Shown: piece by piece, positions 3,798 to 42,200 of the stretch
Position numbering within the stretch: the stretch's first letter is position 1
How the letters are laid out: every line of letters starts with the position of its first letter
Origin: Protula sp. h YS-2021
Taxonomy: Eukaryota > Annelida > Polychaeta > Sabellida > Serpulidae
Reading direction: 5' to 3'
Length of the DNA: 64,000 bases
Assembly (NCBI GenBank): GCA_949752745.1
Contig: OX457025.1
Span: 47,295,601 to 47,359,600 of the forward strand
Program-made: the position numbers and the translations under genes
Notes under the pieces: generated by a model
Told to the model about the DNA's origin: nothing
Database searches by the model: none
Seen by the model: the letters and a program-made list of their open reading frames with translations, nothing else

Positions 3798-3803
3798 CAA
3801 AGA
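3798..3803. repeat. Left target-site duplication (CAAAGA)
   Basis: CAAAGA immediately precedes the left terminus AGTAGTAGG. The same six bases follow the right terminus at 10531-10536. Confidence 0.8.
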
Positions 3804-3849
3804 AGTAGTAGGAAAATAAGGGTTCGAAAACAGGAAGTGACGTCATCAA

Positions 3850-4340
3850 CCCCCCCCCCCCCCAGGGGTCGACTGTCAGAGGTGAGGACCCCCCCCCCCG
3901 GACTGACAACATTTTGTGATTTTGGCATAGTTATCCTTTTCAGACGATTCTGAACAACTTTGGTTTTGAGGACCCCCCCCCCCCCCCCGGGCCGAGAAAA
4001 TTTTGTGATTTTAGCATAGTTATCCGTTTCAGACGATTCTGAACAACTTTGGTTTTGAGGCCCCCCCCCCCCCCAGGACTGACAACATTTTGTGATTTTA
4101 TCATAGTTATCCTTTTCAGACGATTCTGAACAACTTTGGTTTTGAGGACCCCCCCCCCCCCCCCCCAAGGGCCGAGAAAATTTTGTGATTTTAGCATAGT
4201 TATCCGTTTCAGACAATTCTAAGCAACTTTGGTTTTGAGGACCCCCCCCCCCCCCCTAGGGCTAAGAAAATTTTGCGATTTCAGCATAGTTATCCTTTTC
4301 AGACTATTCTAAACAACTTTGGTTTTCATGACCCCCCCCC
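3850..4340. repeat. Tandem repeat with long C runs (left arm)
   Basis: About six units of roughly 90 bp, each a run of about 9-18 C followed by 'attttgtgattttagcatag' and 'acaactttggttttgagg'. The mirror block is at 10005-10485. The run lengths vary between copies and between arms. Confidence 0.9.
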
Positions 4341-4374
4341 CTCTTACTTAAAATTGTGATAACTTTCGTTATAG

Positions 4375-4860
4375 TTAACCAATTTGTATGAAAATTTCAC
4401 CATTTGATTCAGTGTTATGTAAAGTTTTGTCATAAAGTAATCATGGGCTACTTGCGCAGCTGGCTGTGTGCATATTTATAGCATGTAGCCATTTTAACTT
4501 AAAACTGGGATAGCTTTTGTTATACTTGACCGATTTACCTGGAAATTTCACTGTTTGATTCAGTTTTCTATCTTTTTTTGACATAGTCATGGGCTATTTG
4601 CACAGCTGGCTGTATGCATATTTATAGCATGTAGCCATTTTAACTTAAAACTGGGATAACTTTTGTTATACTTGACCGATTTACCTGGAAATTTCACTGT
4701 TTGATTCAGTTTTCTATCTTTTTTTGACATAGTCATGGGCTATTTGCACAGCTGGCTGTATGCATATTTATAGCACGTAGCCATTTTAACTTAAAACTGG
4801 GATAACTTTTGTTATACTTGACCGATTTACATGAAAATTTCACCATTTTGTTCAGTTATT
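4375..4860. repeat. 145-bp tandem repeat (left arm)
   Basis: About three and a half units containing 'acagctggctgtatgcatat', 'aacttaaaactgggataac' and 'cttgaccgatttacctgg'. The mirror copy lies at 9480-9965. Confidence 0.88.
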
Positions 4861-5099
4861 TCTTGTGTTATTTCGCGGATGAATACCATATTGGCTTGAC
4901 CGCTAGATGTCTCTGCTGTGCAGCTCTAAAACTGTATGTGAGACATTCTGCTGAGTCAGCAATTTTAACCAGTTTGAACAAGTTACACACCATATTTTGA
5001 TTACATGTAAGTAGCATAAAAGCATGAGTGAAACATACATTTCAACCAGTGATACACCATCGAAGTAGTATACCTTTTTGTTCTGCTTGGACAAACTTT

Positions 5100-5195
5100 T
5101 TGTTTTTATGACTCTATGACATTATGTGACAACATGCGACTGTGACATTATGTGACTTTATGTAATCTATGACATTATGTGACTCTCTATGACTT
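5100..5195. repeat. Short tandem repeat GACATTATGTGAC (left arm)
   Basis: Degenerate repeats of TATGACATTATGTGAC. The mirror copy is at 9145-9245. Confidence 0.75.
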
Positions 5196-5724
5196 TTTTT
5201 TTAACATAATGGCCATATTTCTATGTCTATTTTCACTATTATTATTATGCTAATATTTAATTAGTCACATTTCAATGGTTTTATTACAATAACCACACGC
5301 ACACACAGCATAGGAATAAGTACATGAAAGGTCTCAGAGTGTGGGGAAACCAATCAATAAATTTCAGAGTGCACTCGTTCAGAGCGTGGGAACGATCAAT
5401 AATTTGAGAAGGAATGGGATTTTCCCTACGTTAAGTCCAATGTTATGTTTTATGTTATAGTAGTTGGAAAATGGTGCAAACTTTAGCAAATGTAGTTTTT
5501 GACAACATATGACCTATAAAATAAGTTTTAGCATTTTACCATGGTACTTATTCAACTATTCTAAAGTTATAGTTGTGCAGAAATGGTGGTTCTAGACCAA
5601 CTTTAACAAATTTAGTTTTTCACGTTTCAAACAATTATACCACTTGGTTGGTTGGTTGATTGTTGGAAAATGAGAAGTGAAAATGTGGATAGTTATGTAG
5701 GAAAAACTGCACCCATTCAAACAT

Positions 5725-5790
5725 GTGTTCGAATGGCAAGCCCATTTAAAAGATGTGTTCGAATGGCAAGCCCATTCAAAACACGTGTTT
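5725..5790. repeat. 30-bp direct repeat (left arm)
   Basis: 'tgttcgaatggcaagccca' occurs at about 5727 and 5755, followed by a related third unit. The mirror is at 8555-8630. Confidence 0.75.
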
Positions 5791-5833
5791 GAATAATTTT
5801 TGGAAGATATTAGGTCGTGGTATTGTTAAAAAA

Positions 5834-6145
5834 TTGTTCAACATGTTCAACATGTTCAACATGTTGTTGTTCAACATGTTGTTGTTCAACATGTTCAACA
5901 TGTTGTTGTTCAACATGTTCAACATGTTGTTGCTCAACATGTTCAACATGTTGTTGTTCAACATGTTCAACATGTTGTTGTTCAGCATGTTCAACATGTT
6001 GTTGTTCAACATGTTCAACATGTTGTTGTTCAACATGTTGTTGTTCAACATGTTCAACATGTTGTTCAACATGTTCAATATGTTGTTCAACATATTCAAC
6101 AAGTTCAACATGTTCTTCAACATGTTGTTGTTCAACAAGTTGTTG
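5834..6145. repeat. Palindromic minisatellite GTTCAACATGTT (left arm)
   Basis: About 300 bp of 9-, 12- and 15-bp modules built from GTTCAACAT and GTTGTT. Each holds the self-complementary octamer AACATGTT, so the array can pair with itself on one strand. It ends directly before the TATA box of the zinc-finger gene. Open frames through it are low-complexity artefacts. The right arm has a shorter version (8335-8520). Confidence 0.9.
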
Positions 6146-6153
6146 TATATAAA
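6146..6153 (+). promoter_or_regulatory. TATA box of the zinc-finger gene
   Basis: TATATAAA lies 54-61 bases upstream of the ATG at 6207, right after the palindromic minisatellite. Being inside the inverted arm, an identical box points inward from the other arm (8328-8335, minus strand). Confidence 0.65.
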
Positions 6154-6206
6154 GCTATGTTTAAAGACTTTCTCATCATTTGAATTGTGTAGGTTGAACC
6201 GAAAGG

Positions 6207-6938
6207 ATGTATCAATGCAACATTTGTTCAAAATCTTACAACTGGCCACAAAGTCTTAAAAGACACTTAAAGGTTGCTCACACGTCAGAAGTGGATGAAG
6301 AATCGGATATGAAAAACCCTGTAAAACTACCTTTCACGGAAACTTTCGACGAGTCTTCTATGGAAAGTGAAAGCGTTAACATGGCTGAAAAGAATGTACA
6401 TGCTTGTACAGAATGTGGTGCATTATACAACAGCGAAGAAGCTTTGCTCAAACATATGGAGCGGTGTGGTGAGGATACCGATGACAGGAGTTCTGAAAGT
6501 GAGTCAGAAACAGACTCTGAAAGTGAGTCAGAAATAGACTCTGTTTGGTATGATATGGTTCAAGAAGTCTACGATGACTATGATGACAAATTTCAAGAAA
6601 AGGTTTCAGAATATGAAGAACAAGGACTTGAAGATCCGCGTGAAATAGCAAGCTATGACCTTCGACCCATTTATAAACATGGACTTAAACAACTGTTTAT
6701 GAGACTATTCAAATATACCCAGCGTCTAGAAGAAAGCCAACATTATCAAAAGATTTTAAAGGACTTTAATTACTTTGTGGATGAAAAACATTACAAGTAT
6801 TCAAAGGCACTAAAGGCGGCTATAAGGAAAAACAATGCATTCTTTGAAGAGCTACTAGATAAGGAAGAGGAGTATGACAGCAGTGATGAAGAAAGTGACA
6901 TGGAGAGTGAGCAGAGTGAAACATATGAAGAAAAATAG
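6207..6938 (+). CDS. C2H2 zinc-finger protein with helical domain and acidic tail (element gene 1)
   Basis: This is an uninterrupted 243-codon frame. Residues 4-25 form a classical C2H2 finger (C4, C7, H20, H25; C-x2-C-x12-H-x4-H). Residues 67-87 form a second finger-like unit with a final Cys (C67, C70, H83, C87). Residues 92-112 are a Ser/Glu-rich acidic linker. Residues 113-222 are a charged, probably helical domain with 'SYDLRPIYKHGLKQLFMRLF' in its middle. The last 25 residues are acidic. The start is the first ATG after the TATA box. The first 15 codons lie in the inverted arm. The gene converges on the PC4-like gene. I infer a DNA-binding regulatory or replication-associated protein. 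The helical domain resembles uncharacterised invertebrate proteins as far as I can recall, with no assigned function. Confidence 0.8.
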   Translation: MYQCNICSKSYNWPQSLKRHLKVAHTSEVDEESDMKNPVKLPFTETFDESSMESESVNMAEKNVHACTECGALYNSEEALLKHMERCGEDTDDRSSESESETDSESESEIDSVWYDMVQEVYDDYDDKFQEKVSEYEEQGLEDPREIASYDLRPIYKHGLKQLFMRLFKYTQRLEESQHYQKILKDFNYFVDEKHYKYSKALKAAIRKNNAFFEELLDKEEEYDSSDEESDMESEQSETYEEK

Positions 6939-7181
6939 ACTTATTTGACTAAACTTCATGATAAAGACTTTATAAATGTTGTAATATTTTATTCGCTTAA
7001 GAGTTGTGTATTAATATATGTCTTGCTTTGCAACATATAAAGTCGCAAGGTTCCTGACGTGGTTTTAATTGACGCGTAAACCATATATCATATATTAGGT
7101 ATTATAGTTAATTTTGTATTATTATGTATTATATTCAAGAATTGTATTATTATGTATTATATCCAAGTATTGTATGAGAAA

Positions 7182-7187
7182 AATAAA
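7182..7187 (+). terminator. Poly(A) signal of element gene 1
   Basis: AATAAA on the plus strand, 244 bases after the stop of the zinc-finger gene. Confidence 0.6.
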
Positions 7188-7211
7188 AAGTTGAAAAGCA
7201 CCATATGTGTT

Positions 7212-7217
7212 TTTATT
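7212..7217 (-). terminator. Poly(A) signal of element gene 2
   Basis: TTTATT on the plus strand reads AATAAA on the minus strand, downstream of the PC4-like gene. It is 25 bases from the opposing signal, so the two transcripts must end nearly back to back or overlap. Confidence 0.55.
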
Positions 7218-7545
7218 GATTATCATAAATATGTACAATTATGATACAAACAAAATTATTTCAAATACATATTATGTTAATACATGTGCAGATTCACAAA
7301 AACTTAACATTTTATAACAACTGACTTCACATGAACATACATCATATTAATTTCATAGCCTTCATATGAAGACAATTTAATTTGAACTACATATCAAATG
7401 TATATGTCCATATGAGTCAAAGCTAAGTTTCAAGTCCTTGTCAAGCTTCAAAACCTTCGCTCCAATCTTCTACACTGAGGGTGATGAAATCATAGCATTC
7501 ACTAAGCTCGTAATGCAGTTAAAATGTATACAGTCATCTCGCTGT

Positions 7546-8118
7546 CTACTCAACGATCTTCTGACAGTCACTGCATTTACACAAATCCATTTGCTGAAGC
7601 ATGAGATCCACTGACGTCATTTGCTTCTTCAGCATGTACCAATCGTTCAATGACAACAAAATTCCCTTCTTGGTAGGATGTAACCTCCCAGATGTATGAT
7701 CCGTAATATATTCACGAATGTTAACCATCACTTTCTGTTGATATTTCGCCAATTTAATATATATTTCTCCATTCATAGGTATCATAACCGGTAAATCGTC
7801 TACACTCATCTTCTTCATGGTGGTAGTAGCATTACACTCTGGTTCTCGCTTCATTTTAGGCTCTGTCTTAATTTTTCGCTTTTTACACGGCGACGTCATA
7901 GCTGGTAACTCATCTCTTTTTCTCTTTCTAAGATGTGGTCGCTTTTGACGCTGCTGACATGACTTCACCTTAGACTTTACCATGGGCATTGCCTTAGACT
8001 TTGCTGTAGGTATTGTCTCAGGCTTTACCATAAAATTTTCTGCAGGCATTGTCTCAGACTTTTCTACAGGCATTGTCATAGATGGTAGTTGTTGCTCGCT
8101 CACTCCAGACATGTTCAC
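7546..8118 (-). CDS. PC4/Sub1-like single-stranded-DNA-binding protein (element gene 2)
   Basis: This is an uninterrupted 190-codon frame. Residues about 15-50 are a degenerate repeat of (T/A)MP..KS. Residues 56-85 are strongly basic with two likely nuclear localisation signals (RKRKRDE, CKKRKIK). Residues about 115-178 match the PC4/Sub1 fold: 'IREYITD' (134-140), 'PTKKGILLSLNDW' (148-160) and a following helix. The C-terminal end carries a CKCSDC cysteine cluster. PC4/Sub1 proteins bind single-stranded DNA and act in transcription and replication. A copy in an element with self-pairing arms suggests a role in handling its single strands or driving its transcription (inference). A TATA box lies about 50 bases upstream. 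Host Sub1 has a similar domain, but the gene sits squarely between the element arms. Confidence 0.8.
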   Translation of the reverse strand: MNMSGVSEQQLPSMTMPVEKSETMPAENFMVKPETIPTAKSKAMPMVKSKVKSCQQRQKRPHLRKRKRDELPAMTSPCKKRKIKTEPKMKREPECNATTTMKKMSVDDLPVMIPMNGEIYIKLAKYQQKVMVNIREYITDHTSGRLHPTKKGILLSLNDWYMLKKQMTSVDLMLQQMDLCKCSDCQKIVE

Positions 8119-8164
8119 ACTTCAGTATCTTGATATAGAATGTGTGTTAGGTCTGAGGGCGGCT

Positions 8165-8174
8165 GCCTTTTATA
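8165..8174 (-). promoter_or_regulatory. TATA box of the PC4-like gene
   Basis: Minus-strand TATAAAAGGC, 47-56 bases upstream of the ATG at 8118. It lies outside the inverted arm, so this gene has its own proximal promoter besides the TATA box of the arm at 8328-8335. Confidence 0.65.
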
Positions 8175-8217
8175 CTTTATAGCGAGTTGACTTAATATAT
8201 GTTTAGAAATAACTTTA

Positions 8218-8274
8218 TCACGTTTGCCTTTGTGGCCAGTTGTAAGATTTTGAACAAATGTTGCATTGATACAT
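8218..8274 (-). pseudogene. Decapitated copy of the zinc-finger gene start
   Basis: The right arm repeats the first 15 codons of the zinc-finger gene (including C4 and C7), then leaves the homology and meets a TGA after three more codons. The 18-codon remnant lies upstream of, and on the same strand as, the PC4-like gene. It could be translated as a short upstream frame if transcription starts at the arm TATA box. Confidence 0.75.
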
Positions 8275-8327
8275 CCTTTCGGTTCAACCTACACAATTCA
8301 AATGATGAGAAAGTCTTTAAACATAGC

Positions 8328-8335
8328 TTTATATA
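8328..8335 (-). promoter_or_regulatory. Arm-borne TATA box, right copy
   Basis: Minus-strand TATATAAA, the mirror of 6146-6153, pointing toward the PC4-like gene. Confidence 0.5.
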
Positions 8336-8520
8336 CAACAACTTGTTGAACAACAACATGTTGAACTTGTTGAATATGTTGAACAACATGTTGAACATGT
8401 TGAACAACATGTTGAACATGTTGAACAACAACATGTTGAACATGTTGAACAACAACATGTTGAACATGTTGAACAACAACATGTTGAACATGTTGAACAT
8501 GTTGAACAATTTGTTGAACA
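8335..8520. repeat. Palindromic minisatellite (right arm)
   Basis: About 185 bp of ATGTTGAAC modules with AACATGTT palindromes. This is about 60 percent of the length of the left-arm version. Confidence 0.9.
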
Positions 8521-9479
8521 ATACCACGACCTAATATCTTCCAAAAATTATTCAAACACGTGTTTTGAATGGGCTTGCCATTCGAACACATCTTTTAAAT
8601 GGGCTTGCCATTCGAACACATGTTTGAATGGGTGCAGTTTTTCCTACATAACTATCCACATTTTCACTTCTCATTTTCCAACAATCAACCAACCAACCAA
8701 GTGGTATAATTGTTTGAAACGTGAAAAACTAAATTTGTTAAAGTTGGTCTAGAACCACCATTTCTGCACAACTATAACTTTAGAATAGTTGAATAAGTAC
8801 CATGGTAAAATGCTAAAACTTATTTTATAGGTCATATGTTGTCAAAAACTACATTTGCTAAAGTTTGCACCATTTTCCAACTACTATAACATAAAACATA
8901 ACATTGGACTTAACGTAGGGAAAATCCCATTCCTTCTCAAATTATTGATCGTTCCCACGCTCTGAACGAGTGCACTCTGAAATTTATTGATTGGTTTCCC
9001 CACACTCTGAGACCTTTCATGTACTTATTCCTATGCTGTGTGTGCGTGTGGTTATTGTAATAAAACCATTGAAATGTGACTAATTAAATATTAGCATAAT
9101 AATAATAGTGAAAATAGACATAGAAATATGGCCATTATGTTAAAAAAAAAAAGTCATAGAGAGTCACATAATGTCATAGATTACATAAAGTCACATAATG
9201 TCACAGTCGCATGTTGTCACATAATGTCATAGAGTCATAAAAACAAAAAGTTTGTCCAAGCAGAACAAAAAGGTATACTACTTCGATGGTGTATCACTGG
9301 TTGAAATGTATGTTTCACTCATGCTTTTATGCTACTTACATGTAATCAAAATATGGTGTGTAACTTGTTCAAACTGGTTAAAATTGCTGACTCAGCAGAA
9401 TGTCTCACATACAGTTTTAGAGCTGCACAGCAGAGACATCTAGCGGTCAAGCCAATATGGTATTCATCCGCGAAATAAC

Positions 9480-9965
9480 ACAAGAAATAACTGAACAAAA
9501 TGGTGAAATTTTCATGTAAATCGGTCAAGTATAACAAAAGTTATCCCAGTTTTAAGTTAAAATGGCTACGTGCTATAAATATGCATACAGCCAGCTGTGC
9601 AAATAGCCCATGACTATGTCAAAAAAAGATAGAAAACTGAATCAAACAGTGAAATTTCCAGGTAAATCGGTCAAGTATAACAAAAGTTATCCCAGTTTTA
9701 AGTTAAAATGGCTACATGCTATAAATATGCATACAGCCAGCTGTGCAAATAGCCCATGACTATGTCAAAAAAAGATAGAAAACTGAATCAAACAGTGAAA
9801 TTTCCAGGTAAATCGGTCAAGTATAACAAAAGCTATCCCAGTTTTAAGTTAAAATGGCTACATGCTATAAATATGCACACAGCCAGCTGCGCAAGTAGCC
9901 CATGATTACTTTATGACAAAACTTTACATAACACTGAATCAAATGGTGAAATTTTCATACAAATT
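9480..9965. repeat. 145-bp tandem repeat (right arm)
   Basis: Mirror copy of 4375-4860. Confidence 0.85.
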
Positions 9966-10004
9966 GGTTAACTATAACGAAAGTTATCACAATTTTAAGT
10001 AAGA

Positions 10005-10485
10005 GGGGGGGGGTCATGAAAACCAAAGTTGTTTAGAATAGTCTGAAAAGGATAACTATGCTGAAATCGCAAAATTTTCTTAGCCCTAGGGGGGGGGTCC
10101 TCAAAACCAAAGTTGCTTAGAATTGTCTGAAACGGATAACTATGCTAAAATCACAAAATTTTCTCGGCCCTTGGGGGGGGGGGGGGTCCTCAAAACCAAA
10201 GTTGTTCAGAATCGTCTGAAAAGGATAACTATGCTAAAATCACAAAATGTTGTCAGTCCTGGGGTGGGGGGGGGGCCTCAAAACCAAAGTTGTTCAGAAT
10301 CGTCTGAAACGGATAACTATGCTAAAATCACAAAATTTTCTCGGCCCGGGGGGGGGGGGGGTCCTCAAAATCAAAGTTGTACAGAATCGTCTGAAAAGGA
10401 TAACTATGCCAAAATCACAAAATGTTGTCAGTCCGGGGGGGGGGTCCTCACCTCTGACAGTCGACCCCTGGGGGGGGGGGGGGGT
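10005..10485. repeat. Tandem repeat with long G runs (right arm)
   Basis: Mirror of 3850-4340. G runs of about 7-16 alternate with 'tcaaaaccaaagttg'-type units. Confidence 0.88.
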
Positions 10486-10530
10486 TGATGACGTCACTTC
10501 CTGTTTTCGAACCCTTATTTTCCTACTACT

Positions 10531-10536
10531 CAAAGA
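10531..10536. repeat. Right target-site duplication (CAAAGA)
   Basis: Direct repeat of 3798-3803, directly after the right terminus CCTACTACT. Confidence 0.8.
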
Positions 10537-33268: not shown

Positions 33269-36200
33269 GTTTATTTAGTAAACTTTGGTTCAAAATGCAT
33301 CTCCTCCTACAATTTTGATCCGATGTCATTTATTTTTGGTGTGAGGCATCCCTAAGGGGTCGTGCATACGGCTTGTGCTTTTCTAGTCGATCGGGTGATT
33401 TTTGAATTTTTGGCGAATTTTTAAAGAAAAAATTTGAAAATGTATCTCCTCCTACATTTTTGACCCGATGTCATTTATTTTTGGTATGAGGCACCCCTAA
33501 AGGGTCGTGCATACGGCTTGTGCTTTTTTAGTCGATCGCGCAATTTTTGTATTTTTGGGGAATTTTTAAAGCAAAATTTTCGAAAATAATTCAAAATGCA
33601 TCTACTCCTACAATTTTGATTCGATGTCATTTATTTTTGGTGTGAGGCATCCCTAAGGAGTCGTGCATACGGCTTGTGCTTTTTTAGACGATCGGGTGAT
33701 TTTTGAATTTTAGGGGAATTTTTAAAGAAAAAAATTTAAAATGTGTCTCCTCCTACATTTTTGACCCGATGTGATTTATTTTTGGTATGAGGCACCCCTA
33801 AAGTGTCGTGCATACGGCTTGTGCTTTTCTAGTCGATCGGGTGATTTTTTAATTTTTGGGGAATTTTTGAAGAAAAAAATTAAAAATGTATCTCGTCCTA
33901 CATTTTTGATCCGATGTCTTTTTTTTTAGCCCAGTTGGCTTTTTAGCCAACAGGGCTATACAGATGGGGGCAAGTGTCGTCCGTCCGTCCGTCTGTCCGT
34001 CCCGCGACCGTTAAAAGTGGAATAACTTTTTTATTTTTTATCCGATTCTTACCAAATTTTAAACACGAGTTCCTAACCCTTTACTGCATTAGGAAATATT
34101 TTTATTTTTGCGGTTTAAACCATTTTTGGCGATTTTATTGCCAATTTGGGCAAAATACGAAAAAACCTATCTAGTCCCTCATTTTTCATCGGAAGATTCC
34201 GAAATTTTTTATGAAGAAACTAGGACTAAGGGGTAAAAAAAGTACTTTTTTCAATTTTTGAATTTCGCCTTATTTTTGAATCTACTGAGCTTCAAAGTTT
34301 GCAACTTCTAAAAATTGGCAAATTTCCAATTTTTTTTTCTTAACAAAGTAGTTAAAGTGGAATATCTTTTTTATTTTTTATCCGATTCGTACCAAATTTT
34401 TAACACGAGTTTTTAACCTTCTACTGCATTAGGAATTTTTTTATTTTTTGGTTTATACCATTTTTGGCGATTTTATTGCCAATTTGGGCAGAATACGAAA
34501 AAACCTATCTAGTCCCTCATTTTTCATCGGAAGATATCGAAATTTTTCATGAAGAAACTAGAACTAAGGGGTGAAAAAAGTACTTTTTTCGATTTTTGAA
34601 TTTCGCCTTATTTTTGAATCTACTGAGCTTCAAAGTTTGCAACTTCTAAAAATTGGCAAATTTCCATTTTTTTTCTTAACAAAGTAGTTAAAGTGGAATA
34701 TCTTTTTTATTTTTCATCCGATTCGTACCAAATTTTAAACGCGAGTTTTTAACCTTCTACTGCATTAGGAATTTTTTTTTATTTTTTGGTTTAAACCATT
34801 TTTAGCGATTTTATTGCCAATTTGGGCAAAATACGAAAAAATCTATCTAGTCCCTCATTTTTCATCGGAAGATTCCGAAATTTGTTATGAAGAAACTAGA
34901 ACTAAGGGGTGAAAAAAGTACATTTTTCGATTTTTGAATTTCGCCTTATTTTTGAATCTACTGAGCTTCGAAGTTTGCAGCTTTTAAAAAATTGGAAATT
35001 TCCATTTTTCTTCTTAAAAAAGCAAAGTTTCAATTTGCAGAGGGGCACAATATGTTACATGCAAGTACTTTTGGTTGGAATTTTCAGTAATTTTGTTGTC
35101 AGTAGGTCATTTCTATGATATTTTCAAGTGGGCGATAATAGGGAACATTGGGCGATAAAGCAAGAAAGTTGTAATTTTCGCTTTAAAAGTGCAGGGATCA
35201 ATTCTATGTCCCGAAAATATGATAAATATGATATTTTTTGGATGGGCGATAATAGGGAATATTGGTCGATACTGCAAGAAAGTTGTAATTTTCGCTTTAA
35301 ATGTGCAGGAAACAATTCTAGGACCCGAAAATATGATAAATATAATGTTTTTCGGGTGGGCGATAATAGGGAACATTTTGCGATAATGCAAGAAAGTTGT
35401 AATTTTCGCTTTAAAAGAGCAGGAATCAATTCTATGACCCGAAAATATGATAAATATGATATTTTTCGTGTGGGCGATAATAGGGAGCATTGGGCGATAA
35501 TGCAAGAAAGTTGTAATTTTCGCTTTAAAAGTGCAGGATCAATTCTATGACCCGAAAATATGATAAATGTGATATTTTTCGGGTGGGCGATAATAGGGAA
35601 TATTGGGCGATAATGTAAGAAAATTGTAATTTTCGCTTTAAAAGTGCAGGAATCAATTCTATGACCCGAAAATATGATAAATGTGATATTTTTCGTGTGG
35701 GCGATAATAGGGAACATTGGGCGATAATGCAAAAAAGTTGTAATTTTCGCTTTAAAAGTGCAGGAATCAATTCTGTGACCCGAAAATATGATCAATGTGA
35801 TATTTTACGGGTGGGCGATAACAGGGAATATTGGGCGATAAAGCAAGAAAGTTGTAATTTTCGCTTTAAAAGTGCAGGAAACAATTCTAGGACCCGAAAA
35901 TATGATAAATATAATATTTTTCGTGTGGGCGATAATAGGGAATATTGGGCGATAATGTAAAGAAGTTGTAATTTTCGCTTTAAAAGAGCAGGAATCAATT
36001 CTATATCCCGAAAATATGATAAATATGATAGTTTTCGGATGGGCGATAATAGGGAATATTGGGCGATAATGCAAGAAAGTTGTAATTTTCGCTTTAAATG
36101 TGCAGGGATCAATTCTATGTCCCGAAAATATGATGAATATGATATTTTTTGGATGGGCGATAATAGGGAACATTGGGCGATAATGCAAGAAAGTTGTAAT

Positions 36201-39200
36201 TTTCGCTTTAAAAGTGCAGGAATCAATTCTATGACCCGAAAATATGATAAATGTGATATTTTTCGTGTGGGCGATAATAGGGAATATTGGGCGATAGTGC
36301 AAGAAAGTTGTAATTTTCGCTTTAAAAGTGCAGGAATCAATTCTGTGACCCGAAAATATGATCAATGTGATATTTTACGGGTGGGCGATGACAGGGAATA
36401 TTGGGCGATAAAGCAAGAAAGTTGTAATTTACGCTTTAAAAGAGCAGGAATCAATTCTATGACCCGAAAATATGATAAATGTGATATTTTTCGGATGGGC
36501 GATAATAGGGAATATTGGGCGATAATACAAGAAAGTTATAATTTTCGCTTTAAAAGTGCAGGAATCAATTCTATGACCCGAAAATATGATAAATGTGATA
36601 TTTTTCGTGTGGGCGATAATAGGGAACATTGGGCGATAATGCAAAAAAGTTGTAATTTTCGCTTTAAAAGTGCAGGAATCAATTCTGTGACCCGAAAATA
36701 TGATCAATGTGATATTTTACGGGTGGGCGATAACAGGGAATATTGGGCGATAAAGCAAGAAAGTTGTAATTTTCGCTTTAAAAGTGCAGGAAACAATTCT
36801 AGGACCCGAAAATATGATAAATATAATATTTTTCGTGTGGGCGATAATAGGGAATATTGGGCGATAATGTAAAGAAGTTGTAATTTTCGCTTTAAAAGAG
36901 CAGGAATCAATTCTATATCCCGAAAATATGATAAATATGATAGTTTTCGGATGGGCGATAATAGGGAATATTCGGCGATAATGCAAGAAAGTTGTAATTT
37001 TCGCTTTAAATGTGCAGGGATCAATTCTATGTCCCGAAAATATGATGAATATGATATTTTTTGGATGGGCGATAATAGGGAACATTGGGCGATAATGCAA
37101 GAAAGTTGTAATTTTCGCTTTAAAAGTGCAGGAATCAATTCTATGACCCGAAAATATGATAAATGTGATATTTTTCGTGTGGGCGATAATAGGGAATATT
37201 GGGCGATAATGCAAGAAAGTTGTAATTTTCGCTTTAAAAGTGCAGGAATCAATTCTGTGACCCGAAAATATGATCAATGTGATATTTTACGGGTGGGCGA
37301 TGACAGGGAATATTGGGCGATAAAGCAAGAAAGTTGTAATTTACGCTTTAAAAGAGCAGGAATCAATTCTATGACCCGAAAATATGATAAATGTGATATT
37401 TTTCGGATGGGCGATAATAGGGAATATTGGGCGATAATACAAGAAAGTTGTAATTTTCGCTTTAAAAGTGCAGGAATCAATTCTATGACCCGAAAATATG
37501 ATAAATGTGATATTTTTCGTCTGGGCGATAATAGGGAACATTGGGCGATAATGCAAAAAAGTTGTAATTTTCGCTTTAAAAGTGCAGGAATCAATTCTGT
37601 GACCCGAAAATATGATCAATGTGATATTTTACGGGTGGGCGATAACAGGGAATATTAGGCGATTAAGCAAGAAAGTTGTAATTTTCGCTTTAAAAGTGCA
37701 GGAAACAATTCTAGGACCCGAAAATATGATAAATATAATATTTTTCGTGTTGGCGATAATAGGGAATATTGGGCGATAATGTAAGAAAGTTGTAATTTTC
37801 GCTTTAAAAGAGCAGGAATCAATTCTATATCCCGAAAATATGATAAATATGATAGTTTTCGGATGGGCGATAATAGGGAATATTGGGCGATAATGCAAGA
37901 AAGTTGTAATTTTCGCTTTAAATGTGCAGGGATCAATTCTATGTCCCGAAAATATGATGAATATGATATTTTTTGGATGGGCGATAATAGGGAACATTGG
38001 GCGATAATGCAAGAAAGTTGTAATTTTCGCTTTAAAAGTGCAGGAATCAATTCTATGACCCGAAAATATGATAAATGTGATATTTTTCGTGTGGGCGATA
38101 ATAGGGAATATTGGGCGATAATGCAAGAAAGTTGTAATTTTCGCTTTAAAAGTGCAGGAATCAATTCTGTGACCCGAAAATATGATCAATGTGATATTTT
38201 ACGGGTGGGCGATGACAGGGAATATTGGGCGATAAAGCAAGAAAGTTGTAATTTACGCTTTAAAAGAGCAGGAATCAATTCTATGACCCGAAAATATGAT
38301 AAATGTGATATTTTTCGGATGGGCGATAATAGGGAATATTGGGCGATAATACAAGAAAGTTGTAATTTTCGCTTTAAAAGTGCAGGAATCAATTCTGTGA
38401 CCCGAAAATATGATAAATGTGATATTTTTCGGGTGGGCGAAAATAGGGAACGTTGGGCGATAGTGCAAGAAAGTTGTAATTTTCTCTTTAAAAGTGCATG
38501 AATCAATTCTATGACCCGAAAATATGATAAATGTGATATTTTTCGGGTGGGCGATAATAGGGAATATTGGGCGATAATGCAAGAAAGTTGTAATTTTCGC
38601 TTTAAAAGTGCAGGAAACAATTCTAGGACCCGAAAATATGATAAATGTAATATTTTTCGTGTGGGCGATAATAGGGAATATTGGGCGATAATGTAAGAAA
38701 GTTGTAATTTTCGCTTTAAAAGAACAGGAATCAATTCTATATCCCGAAAATATGATAAATATGATAGTTTTCGGATGGGCGATAATAGGGAATATTCGGC
38801 GATAATGCAAGAAAGTTGTAATTTTCGCTTTAAATGTGCAGGGATCAATTCTATGTCCCGAAAATATGATGAATATGATATTTTTTGGATGGGCGATAAT
38901 AGGGAACATTGGGCGATAATGCAAGAAAGTTGTAATTTTCGCTTTAAAAGTGCAGGAATCAATTCTATGACCCGAAAATATGATAAATGTGATATTTTTC
39001 GTGTGGGCGATAATAGGGAATATTGGGCGATAATGCAAGAAAGTTGTAATTTTCGCTTTAAAAGTGCAGGAATCAATTCTGTGACCCGAAAATATGATCA
39101 ATGTGATATTTTACGGGTGGGCGATGACAGGGAATATTGGGCGATAAAGCAAGAAAGTTGTAATTTACGCTTTAAAAGAGCAGGAATCAATTCTATGACC

Positions 39201-42200
39201 CGAAAATATGATAAATGTGAAATTTTTTCGGATGGGCGATAATAGGGAATATTGGGCGATAATACAAGAAAGTTGTAATTTTCGCTTTAAAAGTGCAGGA
39301 ATCAATTCTATGACCCGAAAATATGATAAATGTGATATTTTTCGGGTGGGCGATAATAGGGAACGTTGGGCGATAGTGCAAGAAAGTTGTAATTTTCGCT
39401 TTAAAAGTGCAGGAATCAATTCTATGACCCGAAAATATGATAAATGTGATATTTTTCGGGTGGGCGATAATAGGGAATATTGGGCGATAATGCAAGAAAG
39501 TTGTAATTTGCGCTTTAAAAGTGCAGGAAACAATTCTAGGACCCGAAAATATGATAAATATAATATTTTTCGGGTGGGCGATAATAGGGAACATTGGGCG
39601 ATAATGTACGAATGTTGTGACCCGCGCATCAAGTCAACCTAAGGAAACTTGTCCACTTGTCCAAAATAAGTACGAAAGTAAAATAAACATGCGCATTGGT
39701 CTGGAATAAGAACCGCGCATTTATCTTTATTAAGTTAAATAAACATGTGCACTGTTCCAAAATGAGAGCCGCGCATCAACGCAAATTAAATAAACATGCG
39801 CACTTGTCTGAATTAGAACCGCGCATCGAGGCAAGTTACATAAATATGCGCACTGGTCCGAAATGCGAGCGTTGTTTGAAGGTATCTATGGCAAACTATC
39901 CATTCTACCAGATATACAAAAAATCTGTTCCCCATTTTTCTGGGAAAGAAATCTTTGTATGCATTTATCGGTCTATGTTCTGGTCCAGTGCTAAATTAAT
40001 TATTGAGCTAGCTCTTTGCCGTCTCATCTTTTGAAGCTTGATATTTCAGGGAAATTCCTTCGCTCATGCACGCTGGAATGGGTCTTATTGCTTTTCGTAA
40101 GCTGGGACTTTGTCCTTGGACAAACTTGTTTTATTCCCCACAGGGGGGGGGGGGGATATATGCGATGGATCGTGTGTCGGTCTGACGGTCTGTCATCAAC
40201 AGCTTGTTAACACGATAACTTAAAAACTGCTGCAAGGATTTAATGAAACTTGGTATTTAGCTTCTATGGGAACAAACACAGATCGGTATTGTAAATGGGC
40301 CAGGTTCGTCCAAGGAAAATGGACCAGCGGGACTTAGAAAATTTCAGCTCTTGATTGACTATTGTTGGCCATGTTTAACTGATGTTGGGTGGGGGGCTGT
40401 GGGGAATATGTGGGCTGTGCACACTGCTCTAGTTTTTTTTTTTTTTGTAAATTTTGTAAATTTTTTTGTAAATTTAAAACTTAAGTTGTAAAACATAAGA
40501 ATTCTTTGATTGGTCAGAACCTTGACAGGAATTTTTCTTTGGTGGATGTGAATACTGCTTTTGAATTTTTTGGACAATTCTTGTTAAAGCTTAACTTGAT
40601 ACTTTAGTTTTAAATTCAATGGAACAAAAGAGCTACTAAACATAGTTCCGTCATTTCTTCCTTTGACTCATCGTATAGAATTTTCAGTACGCTTTGGGGA
40701 AGGGACGGGGGACGGGGGCAGTTGTTGGGTTGACTTCTGTTTTTGTTGACGAAAACAACGGAGGAATTGCTGCGTTTGAAAATGTGTAATAAAATGTATT
40801 GCTTTGCACTGGTGTTAGTGTACCTGGAGTCCTCTATAGTTTTGATAAGAATAGGACTTAGCACAAGTTGTTTTGTTTGGTCATATTGTTAATGTAATGT
40901 GTTTCAATTTATATATGTTTTCAGTCGAATATATGTTTAACCTTACTAGCAAATTTTAAGTCAGTCAATATTAAAAATCGAACTATCTTCAAATATGTAT
41001 GTATGTTGCGTGTTTATTTTGTCCACGTACTTAGAGCATCTTAGCAGACAAGGATAGCAAAATCCTAGACCTGCAAGACCAGTGTCGCCAGCTACATGAC
41101 AGGCTTATCGCCGCAAACATGGACACGGAGAAGACATCAGTGGCTGCTTTAAGCAAGGCCCTTGAGGAGAGGGATAAGCAGATAGAGACATTGAAAAGAA
41201 GGCTTGATGAGGCTGCCGGCGATATACAGGAGGATGCGGATTTGATGGAGGAAGTGCGACAGGAAATGATGAAAAGTGAGTGGGCAAAACGCCATTAAAA
41301 TTGAAACTTTTAAAAGATTAGAGTAATCTCCTATAAATTTTGTTAAATTTGTTCGAAATTTTGTATGAAGGGTGTGTGGTTCAGGGGGTGTTTTTTTTTT
41401 TTTTCGTTTTTTTTTTTTTTTTTTTTGGTTTGGTTTTTGCCGAATTGGCGCAATTCCAAAGTTCTCCAAAATATATTTTCTATATAGTTTTGTGTTTTCT
41501 ACAAATTTTGTAGCACTGTGTCTCCAGTCCACCTGAGTCGAATTGTCGTTTTTGCCCAAATTTGAGCGCATTTATTTTTTTCCACTTTGTTCGCTGTTCC
41601 ATTTTTGATGGATTTGAGAGAAGTTGATTGAGTTTTGCATAAATATTCACTAGCCTGTCTTCTCTTGAGAAGTTATTTTTTGTCGATCCGCCAAGAATTG
41701 TCCAAATGGGGGCATTTTTCGATAGCCAATCTTCAAGGAGTTTCTTCTACAATTGTGATCGGATTGCCTTCAAATTTTTCATAAATATTTACTAAGCGGT
41801 CCTCCTTTGTAAAGTTACTTCTCTCGCAATCAGTCAAAAATTGGCTAAATGGGGGTGGGGAGGGGGCATTTGTAACTTTTTGGGTAGTAATTTTCAGAAT
41901 GCTTCTATTCCCATAATTTGGATCATATTTTACCTTTAAATTTTATGCGAATGTTTATTGGGTAGGCCTCTCTTGAAAAATTTTCTGGCGATCATCCGAA
42001 AACTGACTAACTTGGGGTATTTTTATTTGTTATTTTTTTTTTGGTCTTCAAATTTTGCATAAATGTTCACTAGGCGCTTTTGAAAAGTTACTTTTTTGGC
42101 GATCCGCCAAAAATTGGCTGGGGAGGGGAGGGGGCATTTCCCTTCCCTTCCCTTTTGCAATGTATGTGGACATTGTTTTTTTTCAGTCACTTGACATCTT

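What the first reader, a model, noticed from the sequence alone, without database searches (positions are those of the whole stretch)
3804..10530. Compact snap-back element with Polinton-like ends but only two genes
The sequence shows a complete element: AGTAGTAGG...CCTACTACT ends, a perfect 6-bp duplication (CAAAGA), and inverted arms that take up about 70 percent of its length. Established knowledge: 6-bp duplications, AG/CT ends and long inverted repeats are Polinton/Maverick features. None of the usual Polinton genes is present. Instead there are a zinc-finger protein and a PC4-like protein. I infer a trans-mobilised satellite of a Polinton, or a new small class that uses the same integrase. 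A single strand would fold into a 2.3-kb hairpin with a 2-kb loop.
Basis: partly seen in the sequence, partly recalled or inferred. Interest (0 to 1): 0.88.

Follow-up and report, generated by a model that had tools for sequence, protein, structure and literature searches.

The report
End-swapping satellite of giant Polinton transposons
This 6.7-kb two-gene DNA element, whose core is found in at least 35 places of its genome, has the same ends as a full-size Polinton virus-like transposon there, and copies with almost the same core carry other Polinton end types, so it is likely a satellite that Polintons copy and insert and whose ends are likely borrowed from them.

Summary
In detail: 3804-10530 (6,727 bp), CAAAGA duplications, arms of 2,450 and 2,303 bp (70.7% of its length), two genes. 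In this unnamed 863-Mb genome the 46-bp end occurs 48 times (control 0), and 17 of 18 end pairs examined have a perfect 6-bp duplication. One pair is a 14.9-kb element with integrase, ATPase, protease and polymerase-motif genes, plus a PC4 gene related to the satellite's. Beyond the finding: satellite cores 99-100% identical carry three end types, each also borne by Polinton-type elements, and a core tree rejects one clade for the second type (p 0.008). The ends follow a modular format found 1,747 times (control 0), and the two ends of an element usually match (48 of 53 pairs on one contig). A relative has 4-kb arms over 91% of its length. Trans-replication and end borrowing are inferred. Searches of an open-licence library found no such element described.

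The parts
3798..3803 (.). left copy of the 6-bp target site duplication CAAAGA
10531..10536 (.). right copy of the target site duplication CAAAGA
3804..6253 (+). left inverted arm, 2,450 bp
8228..10530 (-). right inverted arm, 2,303 bp; 2,293 of 2,298 aligned bases identical to the left arm
3804..3849 (+). terminal 46 bp: AGTAGTAGG-AAAA-6 variable-TTC-5 variable-CA then GGAAGTGACGTCA; identical in the 14.9-kb Polinton on C1
10485..10530 (-). terminal 46 bp of the right end, identical to the left
3889..4341 (+). C-rich tandem array, 87-90-bp unit; in two copies with other ends (A, E) the sequence becomes like this satellite's from about 175-181 bp inward
10005..10444 (-). mirror copy of the C-rich tandem array
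4346..4857 (+). 146-bp tandem repeat, 3.5 copies, satellite arm
9489..10000 (-). mirror copy of the 146-bp tandem repeat
5834..6039 (+). TTCAACATGTTG short tandem tract upstream of gene 1
6254..8227 (.). single-copy loop of 1,974 nt holding most of gene 1 and all of gene 2
6207..6938 (+). gene 1: 243-aa protein, two C2H2 zinc fingers, predicted helical domain (about residues 105-208), acidic tail; open at 243 aa or more in 12 of 13 copies, one of these (L053) with a shifted tail
7546..8112 (-). gene 2: 188-aa PC4-like protein, related to the PC4-like protein of the Polintons; 188 aa in 11 of 13 copies, 137 aa in L050, L048 not resolved by the script

Best explanation
The element is a two-gene satellite that has the same 46-bp ends and the same kind of 6-bp target duplication as a full-size Polinton of its own genome, and it is likely replicated and integrated in trans by Polinton polymerase and integrase. 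Shown: shared ends, duplications, empty sites for two relatives, multicopy spread, helper-type elements, and end types that vary among near-identical cores. Inferred: Polinton polymerase would start on the (AGT)2 tips by protein priming; the displaced strand would fold back through the 2.3-kb arms into a panhandle, which restores both tips from one template; Polinton integrase would then insert the linear DNA with a 6-bp stagger. Crossing over in the C-rich tandem array would exchange the outer ~175 bp with a Polinton, and panhandle copying would make both tips match again. The PC4-like protein is predicted to coat or anneal the single strand, and the zinc-finger protein to bind element DNA. 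Derivatives without either gene have the same ends and duplications, so the genes are likely not needed in cis.
For: Terminal 46 bp: 48 hits in 863 Mb (up to 3 mismatches), reversed control 0; I paired them into 19 inverted pairs and 10 singles. 17 of 18 pairs examined have a perfect 6-bp duplication; the exception, L051, lies in an ATT/AGT microsatellite. Three pairs are 14.9, 15.9 and 20.6 kb apart. Pieces of the 14.9-kb element encode rve integrase, chromodomain, Adeno_IVa2/A32-type ATPase, adenovirus-type protease and PC4 and a polymerase with family-B motifs in order. The PC4 genes are related: 28 of 56 domain residues invariant (counted). Two copies inside Polinton genes show empty sites: joined flanks with one duplication align to other Polintons across the junction (L050 to L055, 129 bp gap-free, 89%; L042 to L054, 120 columns with one gap away from the junction, 85%, and to L056, 81% with 7 gap columns away from it). 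Three derivatives with no hit to either protein (0.7, 2.8, 3.8 kb) have the same ends and perfect duplications. End exchange: the seven highest-scoring core copies away from any of the 48 ends carry s2 (six) or s3 (one) tips; in the six with both ends found, both tips are of the same type (for G only 19 bases of the left tip were read). The s2 tip is that of Polintons at L057 and L058 (L059 one base off); the s3 tip that of C1:9529044-9543613, which holds a 96%-identical polymerase. In copy A bp 1-173 match an s2 Polinton (91%) and bp 181-497 the window satellite (89%). The AU test rejects one clade for s2 (p 0.0082) and s2+s3 (p 0.00018). Matched tips: 48 of 53 pairs within 2 edits, at most 8 in 2,000 shuffles. 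Mean arm difference is 0.38% within and 1.12% between elements (11 elements).
Against: No replication intermediate, transcript or mobilisation was observed. Most inner branches of the core tree are weak (1 of 18 starred), and the AU groups were named from end types I had chosen to look for. In 4 of 11 elements one arm is nearer to an arm of another element than to its own mate. Extra AGT triplets at tips, a possible trace of primed slipping, are barely above chance: 37 of 1,747 against 27 expected. End types do not track the polymerase: polymerases 95-98% identical to that of the s1 Polinton sit behind at least five other end types, so a helper-specific key is not shown. No profile library or PDB search named the polymerase or, in the libraries tried, the capsid-like ORF; integrase and protease score just under Pfam's cut-offs, and the integrase region spans more than one frame. 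Selection is clear for gene 1 only after leaving out L053, whose tail is frame-shifted: pN/pS 0.32, p 0.0012, against 0.54, p 0.065 with it; gene 2 gives 0.65, p about 0.11. The window's own insertion site has no second, empty copy.
Confidence: 0.8

Rival explanations
1. Integrase-only satellite: the element is excised and re-inserted, or copied by host repair, through its tips by Polinton integrase, without being replicated by the Polinton polymerase.
For: Ends and 6-bp duplications need only integrase. Gene-less derivatives down to 0.7 kb have them as well.
Against: It does not by itself explain why the two tips of one element usually match (48 of 53), why both tips are of the other type in satellites with other ends (6 of 6 with both ends found), or why arms have grown to 4 kb in a relative.
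Confidence: 0.12
2. End types arose by gene conversion between chromosomal copies, not during extrachromosomal replication (a rival for that one step of the model).
For: More than a thousand ends of this format are dispersed in the genome, a good substrate for ectopic conversion; in 4 of 11 elements an arm is nearest to that of another element.
Against: Conversion of one end would leave mismatched tips, which are uncommon (5 of 53 pairs differ by more than 2 edits). Copies with other end types have 6-bp duplications of their own (5 of 6 perfect), so they either inserted with those tips or were converted at both ends.
Confidence: 0.2
3. Recent internal deletion derivative of a Polinton, with genes left over by chance.
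For: Same tips, and a PC4-like gene in both.
Against: The two PC4 proteins are about 41% identical, the zinc-finger gene was not found in the Polinton pieces read, and it has its own protein family elsewhere. DNA similarity to the pieces of the C1 Polinton covers only the tip with the C-rich array and a 73-bp PC4 stretch.
Confidence: 0.06
4. Self-sufficient new transposon class, with gene 1 as its mobility enzyme.
For: Gene 1 is a conserved family, is listed at 150 places here (a cap), and its model has no fold match at E 0.001.
Against: No catalytic domain found by Pfam; derivatives lacking it have the same ends and duplications; the tips are those of Polintons.
Confidence: 0.03
5. Foldback-type element, local inverted duplication or assembly artefact.
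For: Long arms with inner tandem repeats resemble foldback elements (recalled).
Against: At least 35 full-length core copies at 95-100% identity on many contigs and 6-bp duplications.
Confidence: 0.01

Closest known systems
Polinton/Maverick (polintovirus, adintovirus-like) elements
   Same: (AGT)2 tips, which PMC8097293 (passages seen) lists as a reported Maverick end motif, 6-bp duplications and inverted repeats; here also the identical 46-bp tip and a PC4-like gene.
   Different: Polintons are 15-20 kb and encode polymerase, integrase, ATPase and protease (PMC4028283, passages seen); the satellite has none of these, and its arms take 70% of its length.
Short or non-autonomous Polinton derivatives in print
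   Same: Short Maverick copies are known: PMC8504770 (passages seen) describes fragments of 600-4,500 bp with deletions; [quoted passage not shown]
   Different: Those are decayed fragments, or large elements with capsid genes; not a uniform two-gene family with intact tips, duplications and exchanged ends.
Betasatellites of geminiviruses
   Same: Satellite that needs a helper for replication; [quoted passage not shown]
   Different: Plant virus satellites (circular single-stranded DNA, Rep-type replication: recalled); no relation by sequence claimed or tested.
Virophages and transpovirons
   Same: Small DNA parasites of a larger DNA virus-like element (virophages as satellite viruses: PMC4028283 passage).
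   Different: Virophages encode their own capsid (recalled); no capsid gene is seen here. Transpovirons are recalled only and were not compared.
Foldback elements and snap-back defective genomes
   Same: Arms so long that one strand folds on itself; a relative here has 4-kb arms over 91% of its length.
   Different: 6-bp duplications and Polinton tips; the comparison is recalled, not tested.

Membership tests
Polinton/Maverick | 6-bp target site duplication | tested here: met
   17 of 18 end pairs examined perfect; exception in a microsatellite
Polinton/Maverick | AG...CT tips, (AGT)2 end motif | tested here: met
   motif as stated in PMC8097293
Polinton/Maverick | terminal inverted repeats | tested here: met
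   2,450/2,303 bp
Polinton/Maverick | own polymerase, integrase, ATPase, protease | tested here: not met
   zinc-finger and PC4 genes only; so it is not filed as a Polinton
Non-autonomous partner (satellite) of Polintons | shares tips and duplication length with a gene-bearing element in the same genome | tested here: met
   14.9-kb element C1:47449836-47464757
Non-autonomous partner (satellite) of Polintons | lacks mobility enzymes and is multicopy | tested here: met
Non-autonomous partner (satellite) of Polintons | moves only when the helper supplies proteins | not testable with these tools
   needs cells or animals
Virophage | own capsid and packaging genes (recalled) | tested here: not met
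   two genes only
Foldback element | target duplication length of that group (recalled as not 6 bp) | tested here: not met
   6 bp

The most novel reading that the evidence does not exclude
This animal-sized genome houses a community of Polintons and coding satellites that share one modular end format (nine fixed bases, then two short hypervariable blocks between fixed separators). Satellites persist by repeatedly taking over whole Polinton tips, and panhandle copying keeps the two tips of each molecule the same. The two variable blocks could be an exchangeable recognition key for replication start or for escape from host silencing. The arms also grow inward by fold-back copying until the element is almost one hairpin. 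It would be the first coding satellite known to live on Polintons.
Probability: 0.45. Interest if true: 0.92.

Novelty: new variant of a known kind. Interest (0 to 1): 0.82.

Why it matters
Polintons are proposed to be proviruses, but I know of no direct view of their extrachromosomal life (recalled). A satellite whose tips are exchanged in matching pairs is indirect sequence evidence that such a replicating, recombining linear form exists in an animal germ line. It also makes the replication origin of Polintons testable: 1,747 natural examples of one end format can show which further positions are fixed and which vary. And it adds a layer of parasitism in animal genomes, with two copies found inside Polinton genes.

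Tried and rejected
A full Polinton carrying the zinc-finger gene: the 14.8-kb element C1:22676281-22691049 looked like one, but the 6 kb read from it hold gene 1 and a gypsy-type pol frame and no Polinton gene that I could see, so I read it as a satellite with a nested retrotransposon. Length alone is therefore no test for a Polinton.

The idea that each end type is a key to one polymerase lineage: not supported, since polymerases (95-98% identical) and PC4 proteins (97-100%) are nearly the same behind several end types.

Slipping on AGT triplets as a trace of protein priming: weak (37 of 1,747 against 27 expected, p 0.043).

A paralogous empty site for the window's own insertion: none, only its two flanks. 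Relatives in viral contigs: none for the polymerase or gene 1. Fold matches for gene 1: none at E 0.001. A stable hairpin in the 46-bp tip: none. Homologs of gene 2 in the protein collection: none at E 0.001.

Literature (open-licence papers only, so Repbase-style reports are not covered): 'Polinton' with 'PC4', no paper; phrases for (non)autonomous Polinton or Maverick and Polinton- or Maverick-derived gave 3 papers, each with 'Polinton-derived' only; 'Polinton' with 'nonautonomous' gave 16 papers (listing seen; passages of PMC6431247). Further listings. Passages were also seen of PMC8504770 and PMC10294476. No paper was read whole. The source species was not identified; one search was a taxonomy look-up of a guess that I do not use.

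Rows dropped: three overlapping listings before (97 of 100 used); rows already were entered once; L053 in one of two versions of the selection test; P0021, P0023 and P0024 were left out of the alignment.
Full report
What is there. The element at 3804-10530 is as described. Gene 1 (6207-6938) has two C2H2 fingers; gene 2 (8112-7546, minus strand) has a PC4 domain (Pfam 4e-11; solved PC4 structures at 2e-6). The genes point toward each other. Gene 1 starts 46 bp inside the inner edge of the left arm and gene 2 about 116 bp beyond the inner edge of the right arm, so mirrored arm edges could give both the same promoter (inference). The first 15 codons of gene 1 are mirrored in the right arm.

Copies. 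The terminal 46 bp has 48 hits at up to 3 mismatches and none for the reversed control. I paired them by strand and distance into 19 pairs and 10 singles. With the window's, 16 pairs were read whole, and 15 of these have a perfect 6-bp duplication. Two long pairs, read at their ends, have perfect duplications too (AACTTG, ATTCAA). The flanks of the third long pair (15.9 kb, C4) were not read. The core 6207-8118 has 35 full-length places at 95-100% identity, the window included, a lower bound because 40 of 3,157 candidates were scored. Gene 1 was listed at 150 places, again a limit. Of the 16 elements read whole, 13 hold the core and 3 (0.7, 2.8, 3.8 kb) show no hit to either protein.

Helper-type elements. 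The 14.9-kb pair on C1 was read in separate pieces: rve (6.8e-7, below Pfam's cut-off), chromodomain (1.6e-9), Adeno_IVa2 (2.2e-7) and A32-type ATPase, adenovirus-type protease (3.5e-4, just below cut-off), PC4 (1e-8). An 873-aa open stretch (part of a 1,260-aa frame) has family-B polymerase motifs in canonical order (ExoI, ExoII, A, B, C, KxG; motif definitions recalled). It was not named by Pfam, NCBIfam, PHROGs or PDB sequence searches, apart from a small endonuclease VII-like stretch. The 393-aa capsid-like ORF is named from recall and gene order only. The piece read of the 15.9-kb C4 element shows the polymerase in broken frames, PC4, protease and the capsid-like gene. The 20.6-kb element was not read inside. 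The Polinton PC4 protein is found at 150 scored places at 93-100% identity.

Relation of the two PC4 genes. Over 56 residues of the domain, 28 are invariant between the satellite and two Polintons; satellite and the best solved PC4 structure share 19 (my counts). No host PC4 of this animal was tested.

Empty sites. L050 lies in a Polinton polymerase gene and L042 in the capsid-like gene; joined flanks with one duplication align through the junction to other copies (89% and 85%; L042 also to L056 at 81% with 7 gap columns away from the junction). L048 lies in a tandem repeat whose other units have a single AACATC. The window's own site is unique.

End exchange. I took, in score order, the first seven core copies that are not near any of the 48 ends (A-G) and read their ends. 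Six have tip AGTAGTAGGAAAACGACAGTTCTGGAACA (s2), one has AGTAGTAGGGAAATAAGGGTTCTACCACA (s3). For B the right end was not found in the stretch fetched; for G only 19 bases of the left tip were in the stretch. Of the six with both ends, five have perfect duplications and one (F) differs at one base. The s2 tip is that of the ends near PC4-bearing Polintons at L057 and L058; L059 differs by one base, and L060 has another type. The s3 tip is that of C1:9529044-9543613, which holds a 96%-identical polymerase. In copy A the first 173 bp match an s2 Polinton at 91% and bp 181-497 the window satellite at 89%; copy E matches the window satellite from bp 175 inward. A tree of 21 cores (14 s1, 6 s2, 1 s3; 13 from whole elements, 8 fetched as cores) needs six label changes, about as many as shuffled labels (mean 6.3), and rejects s2 as one clade (p 0.0082) and s2+s3 (p 0.00018). 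Support inside the tree is low. The nearest cores to the window's are s2 copies.

A modular end format. AGTAGTAGGNAAA-6N-TTC-5N-CA occurs 874 + 873 times, control 0 and 0; AGTAGTAG...GTGACGTCA occurs 541 + 536 times, control 0 and 3. On C1, from the first 100 places listed in each of these two calls, 53 neighbouring end pairs give two length classes, 0.6-6.7 kb (25) and 9.7-22.5 kb (28). Of the 53, 48 match within 2 edits (at most 8 in shuffles). The same two blocks recur in short and long elements for at least five combinations. Among 76 combinations of 38 first and 36 second blocks there are 15 sets of four that show reassortment. Since polymerase and PC4 are nearly the same behind different end types, the fixed positions are the better candidates for enzyme contacts; the role of the variable blocks is open.

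Arms. Arms differ by 0.38% on average within an element and 1.12% between elements (11 elements); in 4 of the 11 the nearest arm belongs to another element. Among the 150 listed gene-1 places there are 11 inverted neighbour pairs within 6 kb and one same-strand pair. One such inverted pair was read: L086:181-8856, duplication TGTAAC, arms of about 3.96 kb (91% of 8,676 bp), gene 1 in both arms, gene 2 in a 762-bp loop. The arm boundary has therefore moved, as fold-back copying would predict (inference).

Selection. Gene 1 is open at 243 aa or more in 12 of 13 copies (L053 with a shifted tail, L047 stopped at 73); gene 2 is 188 aa in 11 of 13 (137 in L050; L048 was missed by the script's motif, while tblastn aligns residues 1-188 in one stretch). 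pN/pS is 0.54 for gene 1 with L053 (12 copies, p 0.065) and 0.32 without it (11 copies, p 0.0012), and 0.65 for gene 2 (11 copies, p about 0.11); pooled p 0.025 with and 0.0007 without L053. Gene 1 has 24 relatives from other sources (P0002 was part of the profile, the best other has E 7e-62), with conserved fingers and helical domain. The AlphaFold2 model from 22 sequences has mean pLDDT 70, with the helical domain well predicted and no fold match at E 0.001.

Verdict. A Polinton satellite with two genes and likely borrowed ends; the anatomy and the change of end types are shown by sequence, the mechanism is inferred. It is not a Polinton, since the defining genes are absent.

Noticed in passing
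L086:181-8856: Relative with arms of about 4 kb over 91% of its length, gene 1 in both arms and gene 2 in a 762-bp loop; tip AGTAGGGGGAAAG, a variant of the usual tip.
   Followed up: partly
   Followed up: no
window 5456-5490 and mirror copy; L062:395-515: End-like sequences (TAGTAGTTGGAAAATGG...) lie inside the arms, and as repeats near the end of another Polinton; possibly former tips left behind when new ones were added outside.
   Followed up: no
L042, L050: Two of the 16 elements read whole are inserted inside Polinton genes; could be insertion bias toward the helper or chance.
   Followed up: partly
window 3833-3845 and many ends: Many tips carry GGAAGTGACGTCA or CTTTGTGACGTCA; the first looks like a joined ETS-CRE site (recalled), which may bring host factors to the tip as in adenovirus origins (recalled).
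   Followed up: no
L055:2381-4999: The Polinton polymerase has a C..C...DHxH stretch similar to endonuclease VII (phrog_423, 1.2e-5; motif at residue 157).
   Followed up: no
L077: A gypsy-type pol frame (1,075 aa, open at the edge of the stretch) sits beside gene 1 inside a satellite copy.
   Followed up: no
window 35116-39618: 114-bp tandem repeat, 39.5 copies at 91%.
   Followed up: no
G000 C1:95-28495: Start of contig C1 shows AGTAGTAGG every 2,028 bp, probably a long tandem repeat at the contig end.
   Followed up: no
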